From: Bacteroidota bacterium
GTDB taxonomy: Bacteria; Bacteroidota; Ignavibacteria; Ignavibacteriales; Ignavibacteriaceae
NCBI GenBank assembly: GCA_021793635.1
Contig: JAJYSI010000074.1
Coordinates: 1 to 10,171 of the forward strand
Reading direction: 5' to 3'
Length of the DNA: 10,171 bases
Positions 3,208-9,531 of this stretch are shown here, one piece after another. A program made the position numbers and the translations under genes. The notes beneath the pieces were generated by a model. The model made no database searches. It was not told the origin of the DNA and saw only the letters and a program-made list of their open reading frames with translations. Position 1 is the stretch's first letter. Every line of letters starts with the position of its first letter.

Positions 3208-3651
3208 TTATCCGGGGCGCAAATAATCCCAAATAGGATGCCCCTTGTCATTTCTCATTTTTAGAATAATTCCATTACAAATAATTCTTGCAGCTATCAT
3301 AATAGGTTTATTATTAAAGGTTACACGCGAACCTTCTATTTCAATCTTGTCATTAGCTTTAAGACAAATATTCAGACACTTGGTAAACCAGGTTGGGCAT
3401 AAAATAGCAATGACGGTATCCTTTTTTGTTTTAACAATAAGTTGAATACCATAAGACATTCCGTTAGTTGGTTTAACACTATCTAAACTTACAATTTCAC
3501 CAAAGACAGTATCTATTGTTTTAGTATTAAACAGGCTGTTAAATTTACTACCGTCTTCCCAGCCGTCATTTTCTTTTTGAGCAAAACCAGTCGTTGAACA
3601 AATTATCACTAACAGACATACCACTACGGATGAAGAATAATTTACCTTCAT
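3208..3651 (-). CDS. Small secreted OB-fold-like protein, function unknown
   Basis: A 147-residue protein with a signal peptide (residues 1-25, hydrophobic core VVVCLLVII, ending GFAQ). The mature part reads as one small beta-barrel. It has GEIVSLDSV (51-59), SYGIQLIVKTKKDTV (66-80), LKANDKIEIEGSRV (97-110), NKPIMIAARI (114-123) and a closing KMRNDKGHPIW (131-141). From memory this matches a widespread uncharacterised periplasmic family with the layout VxGxVxxVE, HLxLKT, LGPxWYL, LxPGDxVEVTGSRV, KPALIAxEV, LRDxxGxPxW. No enzymatic role can be assigned. Four cysteines follow the signal peptide (C85, C92, C96, C125); C85 replaces the usual Gly of the LGPxW motif. The start is well supported: GAGGAAGGGG lies 6 nt before the ATG. 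It lies 44 nt downstream of the universal stress protein gene on the same strand and is probably in that operon. Confidence 0.7.
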   Translation of the reverse strand: MKVNYSSSVVVCLLVIICSTTGFAQKENDGWEDGSKFNSLFNTKTIDTVFGEIVSLDSVKPTNGMSYGIQLIVKTKKDTVIAILCPTWFTKCLNICLKANDKIEIEGSRVTFNNKPIMIAARIICNGIILKMRNDKGHPIWDYLRPG

Positions 3652-3665
3652 AAATAACCCCTTCC

Positions 3666-3690
3666 TCAGGCTATTTATTACTCAGCCTGA
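3666..3690 (-). other. Intercistronic hairpin abutting a strong ribosome-binding site
   Basis: TCAGGCT and AGCCTGA form a perfect 7-bp stem with an 11-nt loop in the 44-nt gap between the universal stress protein gene and the OB-fold-like gene. In the minus-strand transcript the 3' arm runs directly into the Shine-Dalgarno (AGCCTGAGGAAGGGG). No T-run follows, so it is not an intrinsic terminator. It may influence ribosome access or mRNA processing between the two genes. Confidence 0.4.
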
Positions 3691-3695
3691 TTTAA

Positions 3696-4196
3696 TTATC
3701 CAACCCAATTTTCCGCGAAAGTATTTCGATTAGCTCTTACATCTTGAAGTAGAGATGCATTTGCCTTTACGCAAATCGTAGGTATTTCGGAAAACCTAAG
3801 AACTTTATTACAAACATTTCCTGTAACAAGATTAGAAAGTCCTGTCCAGCCGTGAGAAGCAATTACGATAAGGTCGACATGATTTTTACGGGAATAGTTT
3901 AGAATCTGTTCGTATGGTTTACCTGGAGCTAAAATTTCGATGATATCAACACCCTTAGAGGAAACTTTATTAATAAAACGTCTTAATTCCTCTTCCGCAT
4001 CAAGGTAGCGTGCTTCCTCAAAGCGTTTCTTGTTGAAATCATCCAAACTTTGGTCTTGATTGTAAACTGACTCGATAATGTGCAGTACATGAAGAACGGA
4101 ATGATTCTGTTTCGCAAGCATATGACCGAATTCAAGAGCTTGCACAGAATTCACAGAGAAGTCCGTAGGCACCAGAATATTTTTATATTCAACCAT
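3696..4196 (-). CDS. Universal stress protein (UspA family)
   Basis: A 166-residue, single-domain Usp fold, slightly longer than the usual 140-150 aa. The N-terminus YKNILVPTDFS carries the nucleotide-contacting D12. The C-terminal half has DLIVIASHGWTGL and GNVCNKVLRFSEIPTICVK. In the ATP-binding pattern G-x2-G-x9-G-(S/T), the first Gly is Ala113, G116 and G126 are kept, and the last position is Asn127 instead of Ser/Thr. ATP binding is therefore plausible but not certain. Usp proteins generally support survival under energy or oxidative stress; no specific partner is visible. A tail of about 20 residues follows the fold (after ICVK). The start is firm, with TAAGGAGG and a 5-nt spacer before the ATG. 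It is the first gene of a probable two-gene unit with the OB-fold-like gene. Confidence 0.9.
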   Translation of the reverse strand: MVEYKNILVPTDFSVNSVQALEFGHMLAKQNHSVLHVLHIIESVYNQDQSLDDFNKKRFEEARYLDAEEELRRFINKVSSKGVDIIEILAPGKPYEQILNYSRKNHVDLIVIASHGWTGLSNLVTGNVCNKVLRFSEIPTICVKANASLLQDVRANRNTFAENWVG

Positions 4197-4224
4197 CGAA
4201 ACCTCCTTATTTGATTATTAAAAT

Positions 4225-4279
4225 ATCTAAATCACAAATTTAGATGTGCAATGTTGGAATAATTGACACATAATGTCAA
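4225..4279 (-). promoter_or_regulatory. Candidate regulated promoter of the universal stress protein gene
   Basis: Read on the minus strand, TAAATTTG (complement of 4235-4242) exactly matches the Bacteroidetes -7 box TAnnTTTG, but no TTTG lies at the expected -33 position, as in activator-dependent promoters. The palindrome TTGACA-N5-TGTCAA (4263-4279) is centred about 41 bases upstream of the predicted start. A second palindrome, ATCTAAAT-N5-ATTTAGAT (4225-4245), covers the -7 box itself. The first looks like an activator site and the second like a possible repressor site. The 17-bp spacing does not match the 14-bp FNR or 16-bp CRP consensus, so no regulator is named. Confidence 0.35.
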
Positions 4280-4305
4280 ATATTTGTACATATATTGCTA
4301 TTATT

Positions 4306-4659
4306 TTAGACGAACAATGTCGATAATTGTTTCGTTACTTCATTTAAATCAAAAGGTTTATAAATAATTGAATTTGTATATTTTCTTATTGTCTTATCAA
4401 AATCTTTAACTTGATTTTCATAAACATAAGTCAGAACAATCGGGACATTAGTTTTAGCTTTACGAAGTTCATAACATAAAGCTTCTATTTTTTTTGATGG
4501 TTGTGTATCAATGATAATCATATCAAAATCCAAATAGGAGGATACCTCTTGCAGAACATGAAGATCTGTAGTAGTAGTTACATTGTAGCTATTCTGCAAA
4601 TACATCAAGAAACTTAAACACATACTTGCATCTGAACTATAGATAATGATATTTTTCAT
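4306..4659 (-). CDS. Stand-alone receiver-domain response regulator
   Basis: A 117-residue protein consisting of one CheY-like receiver domain with no output domain. Expected landmarks are D51 at the end of beta-3 (DMIIIDTQPS), T77 after beta-4 (VPIVLTYV) and K101-P102 after beta-5 (IIYKPFDLNE). The acidic pair normally after beta-1 is reduced to S9-D10 (YSSDAS), so Mg2+ binding may be weaker, but phosphorylation at D51 still looks possible. Such proteins act as phosphate sinks, relays or protein-interaction switches. It lies downstream of the NtrC-type regulator gene after a 265-nt gap, so it may have its own promoter yet serve the same kinase. There is no recognisable Shine-Dalgarno. It is a divergent family member, so the specific partner is unknown. 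Confidence 0.75.
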   Translation of the reverse strand: MKNIIIYSSDASMCLSFLMYLQNSYNVTTTTDLHVLQEVSSYLDFDMIIIDTQPSKKIEALCYELRKAKTNVPIVLTYVYENQVKDFDKTIRKYTNSIIYKPFDLNEVTKQLSTLFV

Positions 4660-4679: not shown

Positions 4680-4708
4680 ATTATAAGGGTGCAAAAATAG
4701 CATGTCGA
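4680..4708 (-). promoter_or_regulatory. Sigma-70-like promoter for the receiver gene
   Basis: On the minus strand TCGACA (complement of 4703-4708), a 17-nt spacer and TATAAT (complement of 4680-4685) match the classical -35/-10 consensus at 11 of 12 positions with ideal spacing. The predicted start is near 4673, leaving a leader of about 13 nt with no Shine-Dalgarno. The rest of the gap back to the regulator gene (4709-4924) shows one weak stem, 4774-4782 with 4792-4800, and no credible gene. Confidence 0.4.
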
Positions 4709-4924
4709 TTTGTGTGCCAGAATTGAATGGGTTAATTGTGGAAGAGCATGCCCAAAATATATCGAAATTAGATATTTTGTAGCAATTATGACTACAGAAT
4801 AGGAATTATTCTTAAAATTACTTCTCGTTATTGAAAAATAATAATCAAATATTTCATGGAATGAGAACCCTGGCAATAAGGATACAGACAAAATATTGCA
4901 TATTCGAGTAAATAGACTAAATCA

Positions 4925-6280
4925 TTAAGCTTTAATATCGAGTTCTTTCAGTTTTCTATAAAGTGTAGAAAGTCCGACTTGAAGGACTTCGGCAGTTTTT
5001 TCTTTATCAAAGTGATTATTTTCCAAAGCTTTGAATATATAATCTTTCTCAATTTTCTTGACATATTCTTCAAGCGAGCCAACTTTAGAAAAATCGATTA
5101 TAGGCCCCTTAGAATTAAAATTTTGAGGTAGATCGTTGAGAAGTATAAATTCAGTCTTGCAAAAAATAGCTGCTCTTTCCAGGGTATTTTCAAGTTCACG
5201 AATTTCCCCTTTCCATTCATAATTCATTAAAGAGCGCATAGCATCGCTGTCTATTCCTTTAATATTCTTATTTAGCTCTTTCCTATATTTATTTAAGAAA
5301 TGATCCGCAAGCAACGGGATGTCTTCTTCCCTTTCTTTTAATGAAGGGAGTCTAATTTCAACAATATTTAGTCGGTAATAAAGGTCTTCTCTGAAACGGC
5401 CATTGGCAACATCTTCTTTAAGATCGCGATTTGTGGAAGCAATGAACCTAACATTGACATTAATCGACGCCGTAGATCCGACGGGCGTATATTCTTTTTC
5501 TTGCAGCACACGAAGCAATTTTACTTGAAGCTGTAGAGGTAATTCGCTTATTTCATCTAAAAACAAAGTGCCACCGTCAGCAGCTTTAATTAAGCCTTCT
5601 TTATCAGAGATAGCCCCAGTAAAAGCACCACGTTTATGTCCGAACAATTCGCTTTCAATTAGATTTTCTGTAATAGTTCCGCAATTAACAGAAATTAGAG
5701 GTTTATTTTTCCGTTTACTGTTATAATGCAAAGCACGGGCGACTAACTCCTTACCAGTGCCGCTTTTACCCGTAATTAAAACAGTCGTATCGGTATCAGC
5801 AACAGTTTGAATCATATCAAAAATTTTTCTAATTGCCGGGCTTTTACCAACGATATTTTCGAAATCAAAATTTCTCTGAATTTCTTTCCTTAAGAGTCGA
5901 TTTTCAAGGATAAGATTTCTAACCTCAAATAATTTTCTAATTTTAATTAAAAGTTCATCAAATTCAACCGGTTTAAGTAAGTAATCACTTGCGCCGTTTC
6001 TAAGGGCTGAAATTGCCGTATCCAAAGAGCCAAAAGCCGTTATAATGATAACAGAAGTTTGTATGTTTAACTTTTTAATTTCTTCAAGAAGCTGAATCCC
6101 TTTCATTTCAGGCATTTCAAGGTCAGTCAACACCAGATCGAAAGACTCTTCAAGAAGCCAATTATAGGCAGCACGTCCATTTTCCGCTTCTTGGACATAG
6201 AACCCTTCTTTTTTCAATACAAAAGAAAGAGATTCTCTAATAATATCTTCATCATCTACAACTAAAATTCTCTCAGCCAT
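4925..6280 (-). CDS. NtrC-family sigma-54-dependent response regulator
   Basis: A 451-residue activator with the full three-domain layout. The receiver (about 1-120) has D9/D10, phospho-acceptor D53 (LTDLEMP), T81 and K103. The AAA+ domain (about 141-375) has Walker A GKSGTGKE (171-178), the sigma-54-contacting loop GAFTGA (218-223), Walker B GGTLFLDE (236-243) and candidate arginine fingers R297 and R303 in GRFREDLYYRLN. The C-terminal Fis-type helix-turn-helix (about 405-449) is NHFDKEKTAEVLQVGLSTLY. All residues needed for ATP-driven opening of sigma-54 promoters are present. It starts 11 nt after the kinase stop, and its Shine-Dalgarno (AAAAGGA) overlaps that stop, so the two are translationally linked. 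The linker before the HTH and the WKGEIREL variant of the usual WPGNVREL are minor differences. The target genes are not shown by the protein itself. Confidence 0.95.
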   Translation of the reverse strand: MAERILVVDDEDIIRESLSFVLKKEGFYVQEAENGRAAYNWLLEESFDLVLTDLEMPEMKGIQLLEEIKKLNIQTSVIIITAFGSLDTAISALRNGASDYLLKPVEFDELLIKIRKLFEVRNLILENRLLRKEIQRNFDFENIVGKSPAIRKIFDMIQTVADTDTTVLITGKSGTGKELVARALHYNSKRKNKPLISVNCGTITENLIESELFGHKRGAFTGAISDKEGLIKAADGGTLFLDEISELPLQLQVKLLRVLQEKEYTPVGSTASINVNVRFIASTNRDLKEDVANGRFREDLYYRLNIVEIRLPSLKEREEDIPLLADHFLNKYRKELNKNIKGIDSDAMRSLMNYEWKGEIRELENTLERAAIFCKTEFILLNDLPQNFNSKGPIIDFSKVGSLEEYVKKIEKDYIFKALENNHFDKEKTAEVLQVGLSTLYRKLKELDIKA

Positions 6281-6291
6281 ATATTTTCCTT

Positions 6292-7737
6292 TTAAGGTTG
6301 AATTGGTAAAGTAATTGTGAAAGTAGTGCCCTTATTTAATTTGCTTTCTACTTTAATATCTCCCTGGAAACTTTTAATTATACCATAGCTCACCCACAGA
6401 CCTAAGCCGGTTCCTTTACCTGCTTGCTTGGTAGTAAAGAATGGTTCAAAAACTTTTGCTAAATTTTCTTCAGGAATTCCTTTGCCGTTATCGGTAAAAA
6501 CGAGAATCACAAAATCATCAATTATTTCAGAACTAATTTCAATTTTCTTTTGCTTCCCGAAATCTTCAACCTCAGCAATTGCATCGACAGCATTAAGCAA
6601 AATATTCACAAATATTTGCTGAATTTGATCCGAGATAAGCGGAAGAAGGGGAATTTTTTTATTCAAATCGATACTAAATATTATGTCTTTAGCTTTAGCG
6701 CCTACTTTAATTATTTCAATAGCTTCAGAAATGTTTTGGTTTATGTCTGTCAATTGAAGTTCATAATTAGAAGGGCGTGAAAAATCGACAAGGTCCCTTA
6801 TAATTTTTGAGATTCTTGTAACCTGTTTTTTGACTAGCTCTAATTTTTCTTTAGCAAATTCATCGTTAGTAGACCTTTGAACGACCTGTACGAGAGCGGA
6901 AATAGAAGCCAAAGGATTGCCTACTTCGTGTGCAACGCCCGCAGCCAAAGTGCCGATGCTTTCCATTTTTTGAGTATGGATTAACTGTTTTTCCAATAAT
7001 TTTTTTTCGGCAAGGTCGCGATGGATACCAAAATACCCTGTAACATTCCCGTCACTGTCGAGAATCGGAGAAATTAATAGTTGAGTATAAAACGGGTCGC
7101 CATTCTTCTTACGGTTTTCCACCTCGCCAACCCAAACTTTACCGGATGAAATTGTAGTCCACATTTTGTCCCAGAATTTTTTTGAGTGTTTTCCACTGCT
7201 GAATATACTGGGGTTTTTACCGATCAAATCTTCTCTCGTATAGCCGCTTGTCGCAACAAAAGCCGGGTTCACATAAATCATTTTCCCTTGAAGATCGGCA
7301 ATTTGTACCGGATTAACAGTGTTTTGAGCAACGTAATAGAAACGCATTAGCTCATTTTCTTTCGTTCTTTGATCAGTTACATCTCTGGCTAAAATAAAGC
7401 AATTCAAATTATTGCCTGACGGATCACCAAATGGTGAAAGGAATAAATTTATATCGAAGATTTTACTACCGGTATTAAACTTTGTAAATAGATTTTCATT
7501 TTTATTCTCGTCGATACAATTTTTCAATAACAATTTAACTCTTCCGACAAATGCAGGTTCAATTAAATCAAAAAAATTTTGATGGACCAGATTATTATTG
7601 GTGATTTTCAAAGTATCATATACGGTTTTATTCAGGTCTAATATTTCCCCGTTCTTTGAAACAATAAAGAACATATCTTGAAATTTTTCAAAAAGGTCAA
7701 AATCAAATTTGAATTTCTTATTGGATGGATTTTTCAT
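6292..7737 (-). CDS. Cytoplasmic PAS-PAS sensor histidine kinase
   Basis: A 481-residue kinase with no membrane segment, so the signal is probably cytoplasmic. PAS domain 1 covers about 15-125 ([20 protein letters not shown]). PAS domain 2 covers about 132-245 ([38 protein letters not shown]) and ends in a PAC-like [18 protein letters not shown]. The HisKA helix carries phospho-accepting H270 in [16 protein letters not shown]. The HATPase domain has N-box N378/N382, G1 DNGKG (416-420), F-box FEPFFTTK (430-437) and G2 GTGLGL (442-447). It is intact and the natural partner of the NtrC-type regulator downstream. Neither PAS domain shows an obvious heme or flavin Cys/His motif, so the ligand is unknown. 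The start ATG has no Shine-Dalgarno. No clear promoter could be chosen in the AT-rich DNA upstream. Confidence 0.94.
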
Positions 7738-7901
7738 ACAAAATTGTGTTTGATTTATTTATGCTAACATTTCACCGTAAAAATAAAAAAAATGAACAAA
7801 TTAAAGTAAACCAACCATAATTTTTTATAATTACCAAACGTGAAACCACTATATAAAATGATGCCAATATTTTTTTTGGAATTTAAATTTAGAAACAAAA
7901 A

Positions 7902-7953: not shown

Positions 7954-8076
7954 GGATTCCCACTTCTGCAAAGTAAAAAAAACCTTCTTCCCAATGTCAA
8001 GAATTTCATATTGAATATAACATAAAATAATATAAAAAAATTGAGTTGCCGGCGTAGAAATCATCAATAGATATAT

Positions 8077-8092
8077 TGGAATGAAGGTTGCT
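8077..8092 (+). promoter_or_regulatory. Sigma-54-type (-24/-12) promoter
   Basis: TGGAATGAAGGTTGCT matches the consensus TGGCACG-N4-TTGCW in the invariant GG and GC, with exact spacing between them, and in TTGC plus the following W. It differs only at the C of positions 4 and 6. Transcription would begin near 8103 and run toward metX on the plus strand. No protein-coding gene lies downstream in that direction before the terminator. An NtrC-type activator is encoded 1.8 kb away on the other strand. Confidence 0.45.
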
Positions 8093-8102
8093 GTGAAATT
8101 TT

Positions 8103-8290
8103 CGCACTATTAGTATTAATAGCCCATAAGTTATAAGAATAGAGTAAAGGTTACGGTAATTTTCCTTCTTGTTCAGCCGCAGCCTTTAATCTATCCTAAT
8201 AACGATTAAAAATGTTACCTCTCATCTTAACGCCCACCTTAGGGCATGGTGAATATGATCCGCAAGTTGATCACCATGCCCTAATTTTTT
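8103..8290 (+). ncRNA. Predicted sigma-54-dependent small RNA
   Basis: The interval from the predicted sigma-54 start to the T-run after the hairpin would give an RNA of about 188 nt. It opens with a small perfect hairpin, CTATTA-GTAT-TAATAG (8107-8122), and ends with a 14-bp terminator stem and T6. The middle is largely unstructured and contains a pyrimidine-rich stretch, TTTTCCTTCTT (8160-8170), of the kind that pairs with ribosome-binding sites. There is no recognised RNA family. The prediction rests on promoter plus terminator on the same strand, not on homology. The alternative is that the hairpin only serves the 3' end of metX, which stops a few bases away on the other strand. Confidence 0.35.
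8239..8290 (+). terminator. Strong intrinsic terminator, plus-strand polarity
   Basis: TTAGGGCATGGTGA (8239-8252) and TCACCATGCCCTAA (8271-8284) form a perfect 14-bp stem with an 18-nt loop, followed immediately by TTTTTT (8285-8290). The T-run exists only on the plus strand. Read on the minus strand, the stem starts just after the metX stop codon but is followed by GGTGGGCG. It may still protect the metX 3' end, yet as a canonical intrinsic terminator it works for transcripts coming from the left. Confidence 0.75.
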
Positions 8291-9499: not shown

Positions 9500-9531
9500 A
9501 AATAAAAACAGGGTGAACTAAAAGTCCACCC
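9500..9531 (-). terminator. Intrinsic terminator between the OsmC-like gene and metX
   Basis: On the minus strand GGGTGGAC-TTTTA-GTTCACCC (complement of 9511-9531) forms an 8-bp stem with one G-U pair. It is followed by TGTTTTTATTT (complement of 9500-9510). Orientation and U-run fit termination after the OsmC-like gene. It lies only about 50 nt before the metX start codon. Confidence 0.7.

What the first reader, a model, noticed from the sequence alone, without database searches (positions are those of the whole stretch)
8077..8290. Possible sigma-54-dependent small RNA beside an NtrC-type two-component operon
A -24/-12 element with correct GG/GC spacing (8077-8092), no coding potential downstream, and a perfect 14-bp hairpin followed by T6 on the same strand (8239-8290) define a transcription unit of about 188 nt. 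The neighbouring divergent operon encodes exactly the kind of activator such a promoter needs. The arrangement recalls LuxO-driven Qrr RNAs, but I know of no described counterpart in this lineage. The T-run polarity is the key point: a terminator serving only metX would carry its T-run on the other side.
Basis: partly seen in the sequence, partly recalled or inferred. Interest (0 to 1): 0.72.

Follow-up and report, generated by a model that had tools for sequence, protein, structure and literature searches.

The report
Sigma-54 small RNA beside its two-component regulator
The stretch most likely encodes a previously undescribed small regulatory RNA, switched on through an enhancer-dependent promoter by the two-component regulator encoded next door, and kept in related bacteria although most of the surrounding intergenic DNA has changed.

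Summary
In the window alone the -24/-12 match is near chance (1 found, 0.34 expected); relatives decide. A covariance model of the 3' part hits 9 of 164 genomes of the order, all of one genus; all 9 have the -24/-12 element upstream. Three loci of other genera, found beside the orthologous kinase, share the layout. Promoter identity is 91%, flanks 31-36%. The terminator stem covaries and its G-U pairs point to the + strand. A pair of dyads 30-31 bp apart lies upstream in 13 of 13 loci, scoring 16-19 against 11-14 at 22 decoy promoters. Similar pairs precede this window's receiver/universal-stress operon (8 of 8 loci) and cydAB (clear in 4 of 11 genus genomes). Most kinase-bearing loci read from other genera (23 of 26) lack the RNA. 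Hfq: 0 of 14 genomes. Transcription, activator binding and targets are untested; one target search failed. It is a new RNA family working like GlmY, CrcZ or Qrr without being shown to be one.

The parts
7957..7972 (.). upstream dyad 1 (TTCCCACTTCTGCAAA), putative activator (enhancer) site
   Evidence: pair 30-31 bp apart in 13 of 13 loci; window coordinates
7988..8003 (.). upstream dyad 2 (TTCCCAATGTCAAGAA), putative activator (enhancer) site
   Evidence: its start lies 88-91 bp (7 loci) or 99-104 bp (6 loci) from the -24 G, two clusters about one helical turn apart
8076..8091 (+). -24/-12 (sigma-54 type) promoter element TTGGAATGAAGGTTGC
   Evidence: 91% mean identity over 11 loci against 31-36% in the flanks
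8103..8290 (+). predicted small RNA, 188 nt (from +1, 12 nt after the -12 C, to the end of T6)
   Evidence: inferred from promoter and terminator; predicted lengths in relatives 111-347 nt; no shared ORF
8130..8203 (+). 5' domain long hairpin, seen in the window's own clade (L133-L136), not in the other relatives
8213..8238 (+). conserved segment, predicted single-stranded, with CCTCTC (8218-8223, kept in the genus) and CCCACC (8233-8238; CCYACC is kept in all four genera)
8239..8290 (+). terminator: stem 8239-8252/8271-8284, loop with GATCCGCAAGT (invariant in the genus copies), T6
   Evidence: 7 of 13 pairs with changes on both sides
6292..7737 (-). sensor histidine kinase with PAS domains, divergent from the RNA
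   Evidence: one match each in 55 of 61 family genomes at E <= 1e-100
4925..6280 (-). NtrC-type response regulator (receiver, sigma-54 activation domain, Fis-type HTH), proposed activator
4822..4867 (-). second dyad pair (4867-4852 and 4837-4822) upstream of the receiver-like/Usp operon
   Evidence: 8 of 8 loci, 30-31 bp spacing, 17 of 20 points each (no shuffle control made for these)
4705..4719 (-). -24/-12-like element TGGCACACAAATCGA of that operon; the -12 dinucleotide is GA here, GC in 3 of 8 loci
3208..4659 (-). receiver-like protein (4306-4659), universal stress protein (3696-4196) and a 147-aa protein (3208-3651): proposed co-regulated operon

Best explanation
The + strand of 8103-8290 encodes a non-coding small RNA. 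The phosphorylated NtrC-type regulator of the divergent kinase/regulator operon binds the two dyads at 7957-8003, and by DNA looping and ATP hydrolysis opens sigma-54 RNA polymerase at the -24/-12 element. Transcription ends at the hairpin at the edge of metX. The same regulator probably also drives the receiver/universal-stress operon next to its own gene and, in some relatives, cytochrome bd (cydAB), so the RNA would be the post-transcriptional arm of a respiratory or stress response. The most likely action is pairing of the conserved C-rich segment (CCTCTC and CCYACC, just before the terminator) with G-rich ribosome-binding regions of target mRNAs, without Hfq. Shown by computation: conservation of promoter, dyads and 3' domain, and the strand. 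Inferred from neighbourhood, shared sites and partial co-occurrence: the activator. Inference only: the targets and mode of action. My confidence is 0.82 for a sigma-54-driven RNA activated by the neighbour and well under 0.6 for the pairing step.
For: R1 found the 3' domain in 9 of 164 genomes, one copy each. The -24 G lies 48-183 nt upstream of it in 9 of 9, and the element is found with dyads and terminator in 3 loci of other genera beside the orthologous kinase. Promoter identity is 0.91 against 0.31-0.36 in the flanks. Best dyad pair: 16-19 of 20 points in 13 of 13 loci, reached by 0 or 1 of 500 shuffles each, against 11-14 at 22 decoy promoter matches. Stem: 99.2% of cells paired, 7 of 13 pairs changed on both sides, 0 of 500 shuffles as high on both. 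Strand: 13 G-U cells against 1 A-C cell. No shared ORF; the 111-nt version has none over 1 codon. RpoN in 16 of 16 genomes. Among 13 genus genomes, 8 have both kinase and RNA and 3 have neither. In L147 and L151 the gene beyond the RNA is not metX (CN_hydrolase and semialdehyde dehydrogenase) while the kinase stays. Similar dyad pairs stand before the Usp operon and, in some genomes, cydAB.
Against: No RNA, protein-DNA or mutant data. The kinase is matched in 55 of 61 family genomes, but of 26 loci read from other genera only 3 have the RNA layout, so the two-component system usually does without it there. G006 and G007 have dyad-like pairs at cydA although no kinase match was found there, so another regulator may read such sites. 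5 of 11 genus cydA genes lack the pair and 2 have a weak one. The -12 dinucleotide is GT in 4 of 13 loci. T-runs are interrupted in four relatives. One seed-based target search gave 32 hits against 27 for the reversed control, and no orthologous target among those compared. R2 failed to recover the L147 copy that I had left out as a test.
Confidence: 0.82

Rival explanations
1. A real sigma-54-driven RNA, but activated by another enhancer-binding protein, the neighbouring regulator being only a neighbour.
For: Dyad-like pairs occur at cydA in G006 and G007 where no kinase match was found. Other NtrC-type regulators in these genomes were not counted.
Against: The RNA sits beside the same kinase gene in four genera while the gene on its other side differs in two of them; both are missing together in 3 of 13 genus genomes; the same kind of site lies before the operon next to the regulator gene in 8 of 8 loci.
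Confidence: 0.12
2. The hairpin is only a terminator that separates metX from the divergent operon, and the promoter match is chance.
For: The hairpin lies at the metX stop codon and the T-run overlaps it; the promoter motif alone is near chance in one window.
Against: Promoter, dyads and 3' domain are kept together in 13 loci; in L147 and L151 the gene beyond is not metX; G-U pairs fit a + strand RNA; on the metX strand of the window the stem is not followed by a T-run.
Confidence: 0.03
3. The RNA does not pair with mRNAs but titrates a protein through its CCYACC motif and stem-loop, in the manner of CrcZ with Hfq-Crc. (This is a rival for the last step only, not for the existence of the RNA.)
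For: The part kept across genera is very short (CCYACC plus stem); the seed-based target search found nothing; Hfq, a usual helper of pairing, was not found.
Against: By eye there is one CCYACC copy at the conserved place, whereas sponges carry many sites (recalled). No candidate partner protein was tested.
Confidence: 0.25
4. The RNA is a messenger for a very small protein.
For: Short ORFs of up to 29 codons occur in single copies (L135, L147).
Against: No ORF is shared among the longest ones of 12 copies; the L139 version (111 nt) has none over 1 codon. Frames running out of the predicted RNA were not counted.
Confidence: 0.02

Closest known systems
GlmY beside the qseEGF (glrKR) operon, E. 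coli
   Same: A sigma-54 promoter of a small RNA, activated through upstream activating sequences by the NtrC-type regulator encoded in the operon immediately next to it (PMC6075780, passages read).
   Different: In E. coli glmY lies upstream of qseEGF; here the RNA is divergent from the operon. The site there is TGT-N12-ACA. No Rfam family matched here.
CrcZ/CrcY with CbrA/CbrB, Pseudomonas and Azotobacter
   Same: RpoN-dependent small RNAs activated by an NtrC-type two-component regulator; crcZ lies downstream of cbrB (PMC6292655, passages read).
   Different: CrcZ and CrcY act against Hfq-Crc; Hfq was not found here in 14 of 14 genomes searched.
Qrr RNAs with LuxO, Vibrio
   Same: Sigma-54-dependent small RNA switched on by enhancer-binding proteins (PMC10162802: title and abstract start, one reference-list passage).
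   Different: Qrr RNAs work with Hfq in quorum sensing and come in several copies in many vibrios (recalled; a cited title names Hfq). One copy here, Hfq not found.

Membership tests
sigma-54-dependent promoters | GG-N10-GC -24/-12 element | tested here: met
   GC in 9 of 13 loci (window included), GT in 4 of 13
sigma-54-dependent promoters | RpoN encoded in the genome | tested here: met
   16 of 16 related genomes; the window's own assembly is not held
sigma-54-dependent promoters | upstream activator sites | tested here: met
   dyad pair in 13 of 13 loci, decoys lower; by sequence, binding not tested
trans-acting small RNA | own promoter and terminator, no conserved ORF | tested here: met
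   by sequence only
trans-acting small RNA | conserved pairing with target mRNAs | tested here: inconclusive
   one seed pattern in 9 genomes, 32 hits against 27 control, no orthologous target among 9 ORFs compared
Qrr RNA | match to an Rfam family model | tested here: not met
   Rfam scan of the window to E = 1: only one chance-level hit elsewhere; that a Qrr model is in the library is recalled
Qrr RNA | Hfq-dependent action | tested here: not met
   Hfq in 0 of 14 related genomes; 5 of 14 control genomes ring
GlmY/GlmZ, CrcZ | match to an Rfam family model | tested here: not met
   that these models are in the library was not checked
GlmY/GlmZ, CrcZ, Qrr | the regulator is the ortholog of QseF, CbrB or LuxO | tested here: inconclusive
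   the regulator matches many NtrC-type NCBIfam models, best AtoC, all 25 shown below their cut-offs; no tree was built
any | transcript detected | not testable with these tools
   no RNA-seq at hand

The most novel reading that the evidence does not exclude
This is the founding member of a small-RNA family in Ignavibacteria-type bacteria: an Hfq-independent riboregulator with a fixed 3' module (CCYACC plus terminator stem-loop) and a freely replaced 5' part of very different length, serving as the RNA output of a respiratory or stress two-component system that also controls a universal stress protein operon and, in some species, cytochrome bd.
Probability: 0.4. Interest if true: 0.72.

Novelty: new member of a known kind. 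Interest (0 to 1): 0.58.

Why it matters
I found no small RNA described for Ignavibacteria in open papers: one search gave 6 papers with both terms, none about such an RNA by title and abstract start; one search gave none; searches listed none, but only 15 of 390, 15 of 1,809 and 1 of 1 papers were seen. The sigma-54 small RNAs I know are from Proteobacteria and Myxococcota (recalled). A conserved case in genomes without a detected Hfq would show the enhancer-dependent small-RNA circuit in another phylum, and gives a defined promoter, enhancer, activator and RNA to test. It also links a two-component system present in most of the family genomes sampled to a universal stress operon and, in part, to cytochrome bd.

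Tried and rejected
Rejected: chance promoter; metX terminator only; small protein gene; known Rfam family.

Led nowhere: R2 over 391 genomes of the class gave 8 hits: 4 of the genus, the two other-genus copies it was built from (G082, G084), and two weak hits (G014, G287) that lie in sequence reading as protein-coding by eye, without dyads or promoter. R2 did not find the left-out L147 copy. The seed-target search found no orthologous target: 30 of 32 hits had loci, 9 frames of at least 50 codons were compared; two hits (L249, L253) open similar 25-codon frames, not pursued. L148, sister of L147, may hold a decayed copy, but its best dyad score (12) is at decoy level. Only 30 kinase loci of 55 genomes with a match were read (loci limit), and in L153 only 584 bases upstream. 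My first promoter expression was mis-spaced and was repeated; the expression failed to find the sites in four loci and was replaced. Paper search asked for a word stem as a whole word and so could find nothing; it is no evidence.

Rows dropped: L133 and L135, near-identical to the window, were left out of the 11-locus identities (with L135 in, flanks are 32-37% and the 18 bases 84%); L133 and L147 were left out of A5.

Not done: structure prediction, protein homology search over the large database, a tree of the regulators.

Full report
Check of the observation. The -24/-12 element is TTGGAATGAAGGTTGC at 8076-8091 on the + strand, one base left of the stated place; the stem is 8239-8252 with 8271-8284 and T6 is 8285-8290. 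The predicted RNA of 188 nt folds better than all of 200 shuffles, z = -4.66. In this window alone the promoter pattern is not beyond chance: 1 found, 0.34 expected. Rfam gives nothing at this place up to E = 1. The kinase and NtrC-type regulator are confirmed by Pfam.

Relatives. The window's own assembly is not held; the nearest genome G001 shares 54% of sampled words and matches the region at 99%. metX relatives include four near MAGs labelled Bacteroidetes and one labelled Ignavibacteriaceae (L011-L015). The last matched only the 3' part by BLAST, yet carries TTTGGAATGAAGATTGC upstream. A covariance model (R1, six sequences) searched over 164 genomes of the order hit 9, all of one genus, 9 of its 13 genomes, one copy each. 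In all 9 the -24/-12 element lies upstream, identical to TGGAATGAAGATTGC or with one change, its -24 G 48-183 nt before the 3' domain. In 8 of the 9 the RNA lies between metX and the kinase gene; in the ninth (G011) the contig of 3,026 bases holds metX and the RNA but not the kinase.

Wider finds. The kinase has one match at E <= 1e-100 in 55 of 61 family genomes. I read the upstream region of 30 of these loci (4 of the genus, 26 of other genera). Three of the 26, each from a different genus (L146, L147, L151), have the dyad pair, the -24/-12 element (with 1, 3 and 1 changes), CCYACC and a terminator; in the other 23 my expressions did not find the layout. L021 has metX and the kinase less than 100 bases apart, with little room for the RNA. 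In L146 the neighbour is still metX; in L147 and L151 the gene beyond the terminator is a carbon-nitrogen hydrolase and a semialdehyde dehydrogenase by Pfam. So the RNA keeps company with the kinase rather than with metX.

Promoter and enhancer. Over 11 loci the 15 bases from -26 to -12 are 91% identical on average, while the 20 bases on either side are 36% and 31% identical. The -12 dinucleotide is GC in 9 of 13 loci and GT in 4 (L136, L137, L146, L147). Upstream, each of 13 loci (the window, 9 of the genus of which L133 and L135 are near-identical to it, 3 others) has two 16-bp dyads of the type TTCYC-N6-GRGAA, 30-31 bp apart; the distance from the second to the -24 G is 88-91 in 7 loci and 99-104 in 6, about one helical turn apart. 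The pair scores 16-19 of 20 points, reached by 0 or 1 of 500 dinucleotide shuffles in each locus; the weakest is L151. The scoring rule was drawn from these loci. The fair control is the 22 decoys: sites in the same set of genomes with at most one mismatch to the promoter that are not RNA loci (22 of 28 such sites listed, those with a fetched locus); their best pairs score 11-14, and none has a single dyad of at most two mismatches together with a terminator.

RNA. The 3' stem of 11 aligned copies (10 distinct rows) has 99.2% of cells paired and 7 of 13 pairs changed on both sides, 0 of 500 shuffles as high; for further pair types 2 of 500; slid versions reach at most 50.4% paired. On the same rows there are 13 G-U cells and 1 A-C cell. 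G-U on the + strand would be A-C on the - strand, so the stem is kept as a + strand RNA. Predicted lengths run from 111 to 347 nt, with 5' parts that share little; the long 5' hairpin of the window (8130-8203) is seen in its own clade only. CCYACC lies directly before the stem, or three bases before it in L147, in all four genera. No ORF closed inside the RNA is shared.

Activator and co-regulated genes. Among 13 genus genomes, 8 have both kinase and RNA, 3 (G006, G007, G008) neither, one (G011) the RNA only, on a short contig, one (G004) the kinase only, 170 bases from a contig end; G007 is 79% complete. RpoN is in 16 of 16. A similar dyad pair precedes the receiver-like/Usp operon in 8 of 8 loci, with TGGCAC at -24 in 8 of 8 and GC at -12 in 3 of 8. 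A pair also precedes cydAB (cydB over its NCBIfam cut-off, cydA matching below it): of 11 genus orthologs 4 are clear with a promoter (G001, G010, G012, G006), 2 weak without one (G009, G007), 5 without. None was seen at the cydA relatives of other genera. G006 and G007 have no kinase match, which speaks against a strict one-to-one link. The respiratory or stress reading is therefore inference.

Mode of action. Hfq was found in 0 of 14 genomes, while 5 of 14 control genomes ring. I propose pairing of the C-rich segment with ribosome-binding regions. The one test made, the complement of the CCTCTC segment 3-11 bases before an ATG in 9 genomes, gave 32 hits against 27 for the reversed control and no orthologous target. 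Titration of a protein remains open.

Comparison. GlmY with QseEF (PMC6075780, passages) and CrcZ with CbrAB (PMC6292655, passages) have the same logic: a sigma-54 small RNA beside the regulator that drives it. None is a family match by Rfam. A recent survey of sigma-54 regulons (PMC12316311, two passages) has no occurrence of Ignavibact, small RNA or non-coding in its main text; it does report universal stress proteins among sigma-54 regulons of Planctomycetia, so a sigma-54-driven Usp gene is not new in itself. Paper searches for such an RNA in Ignavibacteria or related phyla listed none; they cover open-licence papers only, and apart from the passages named I saw listings.

Verdict. A conserved small-RNA gene with an enhancer-dependent promoter is very likely; the neighbouring regulator as its activator is likely; its targets are unknown.

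Noticed in passing
4822-4867 and 4705-4719, - strand: Dyad pair and TGGCAC-type -24 element upstream of the receiver-like/Usp/147-aa operon, in 8 of 8 loci: a second likely target of the same regulator.
   Followed up: partly
L202, L203, L208, L257-L267 (upstream of cydA): The same kind of dyad pair and a -24/-12 element before cydAB, clear in 4 of 11 genus genomes, one of which (G006) has no kinase match.
   Followed up: partly
7846-7866: Block CCACTATATAAAATGATGCCA, upstream of the kinase gene, recurs in similar form in several genus relatives (seen by eye); perhaps the kinase promoter on the - strand.
   Followed up: no
4306-4659, - strand: Receiver-like protein scoring below the Pfam cut-off (22.8 against 30.2 bits), beside a universal stress protein; may be a degenerate receiver.
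   Followed up: no
L220 (G003 kinase): The kinase match of G003 holds one TAA; sequencing error, start-region effect or decay, not examined.
   Followed up: no
L148, upstream of the kinase: Sister of L147 with a similar-looking terminator region by eye but no clear promoter or dyads; possibly a decayed copy.
   Followed up: partly
9511-9531, - strand: Hairpin with a T-rich tail between the OsmC-like gene and metX.
   Followed up: no
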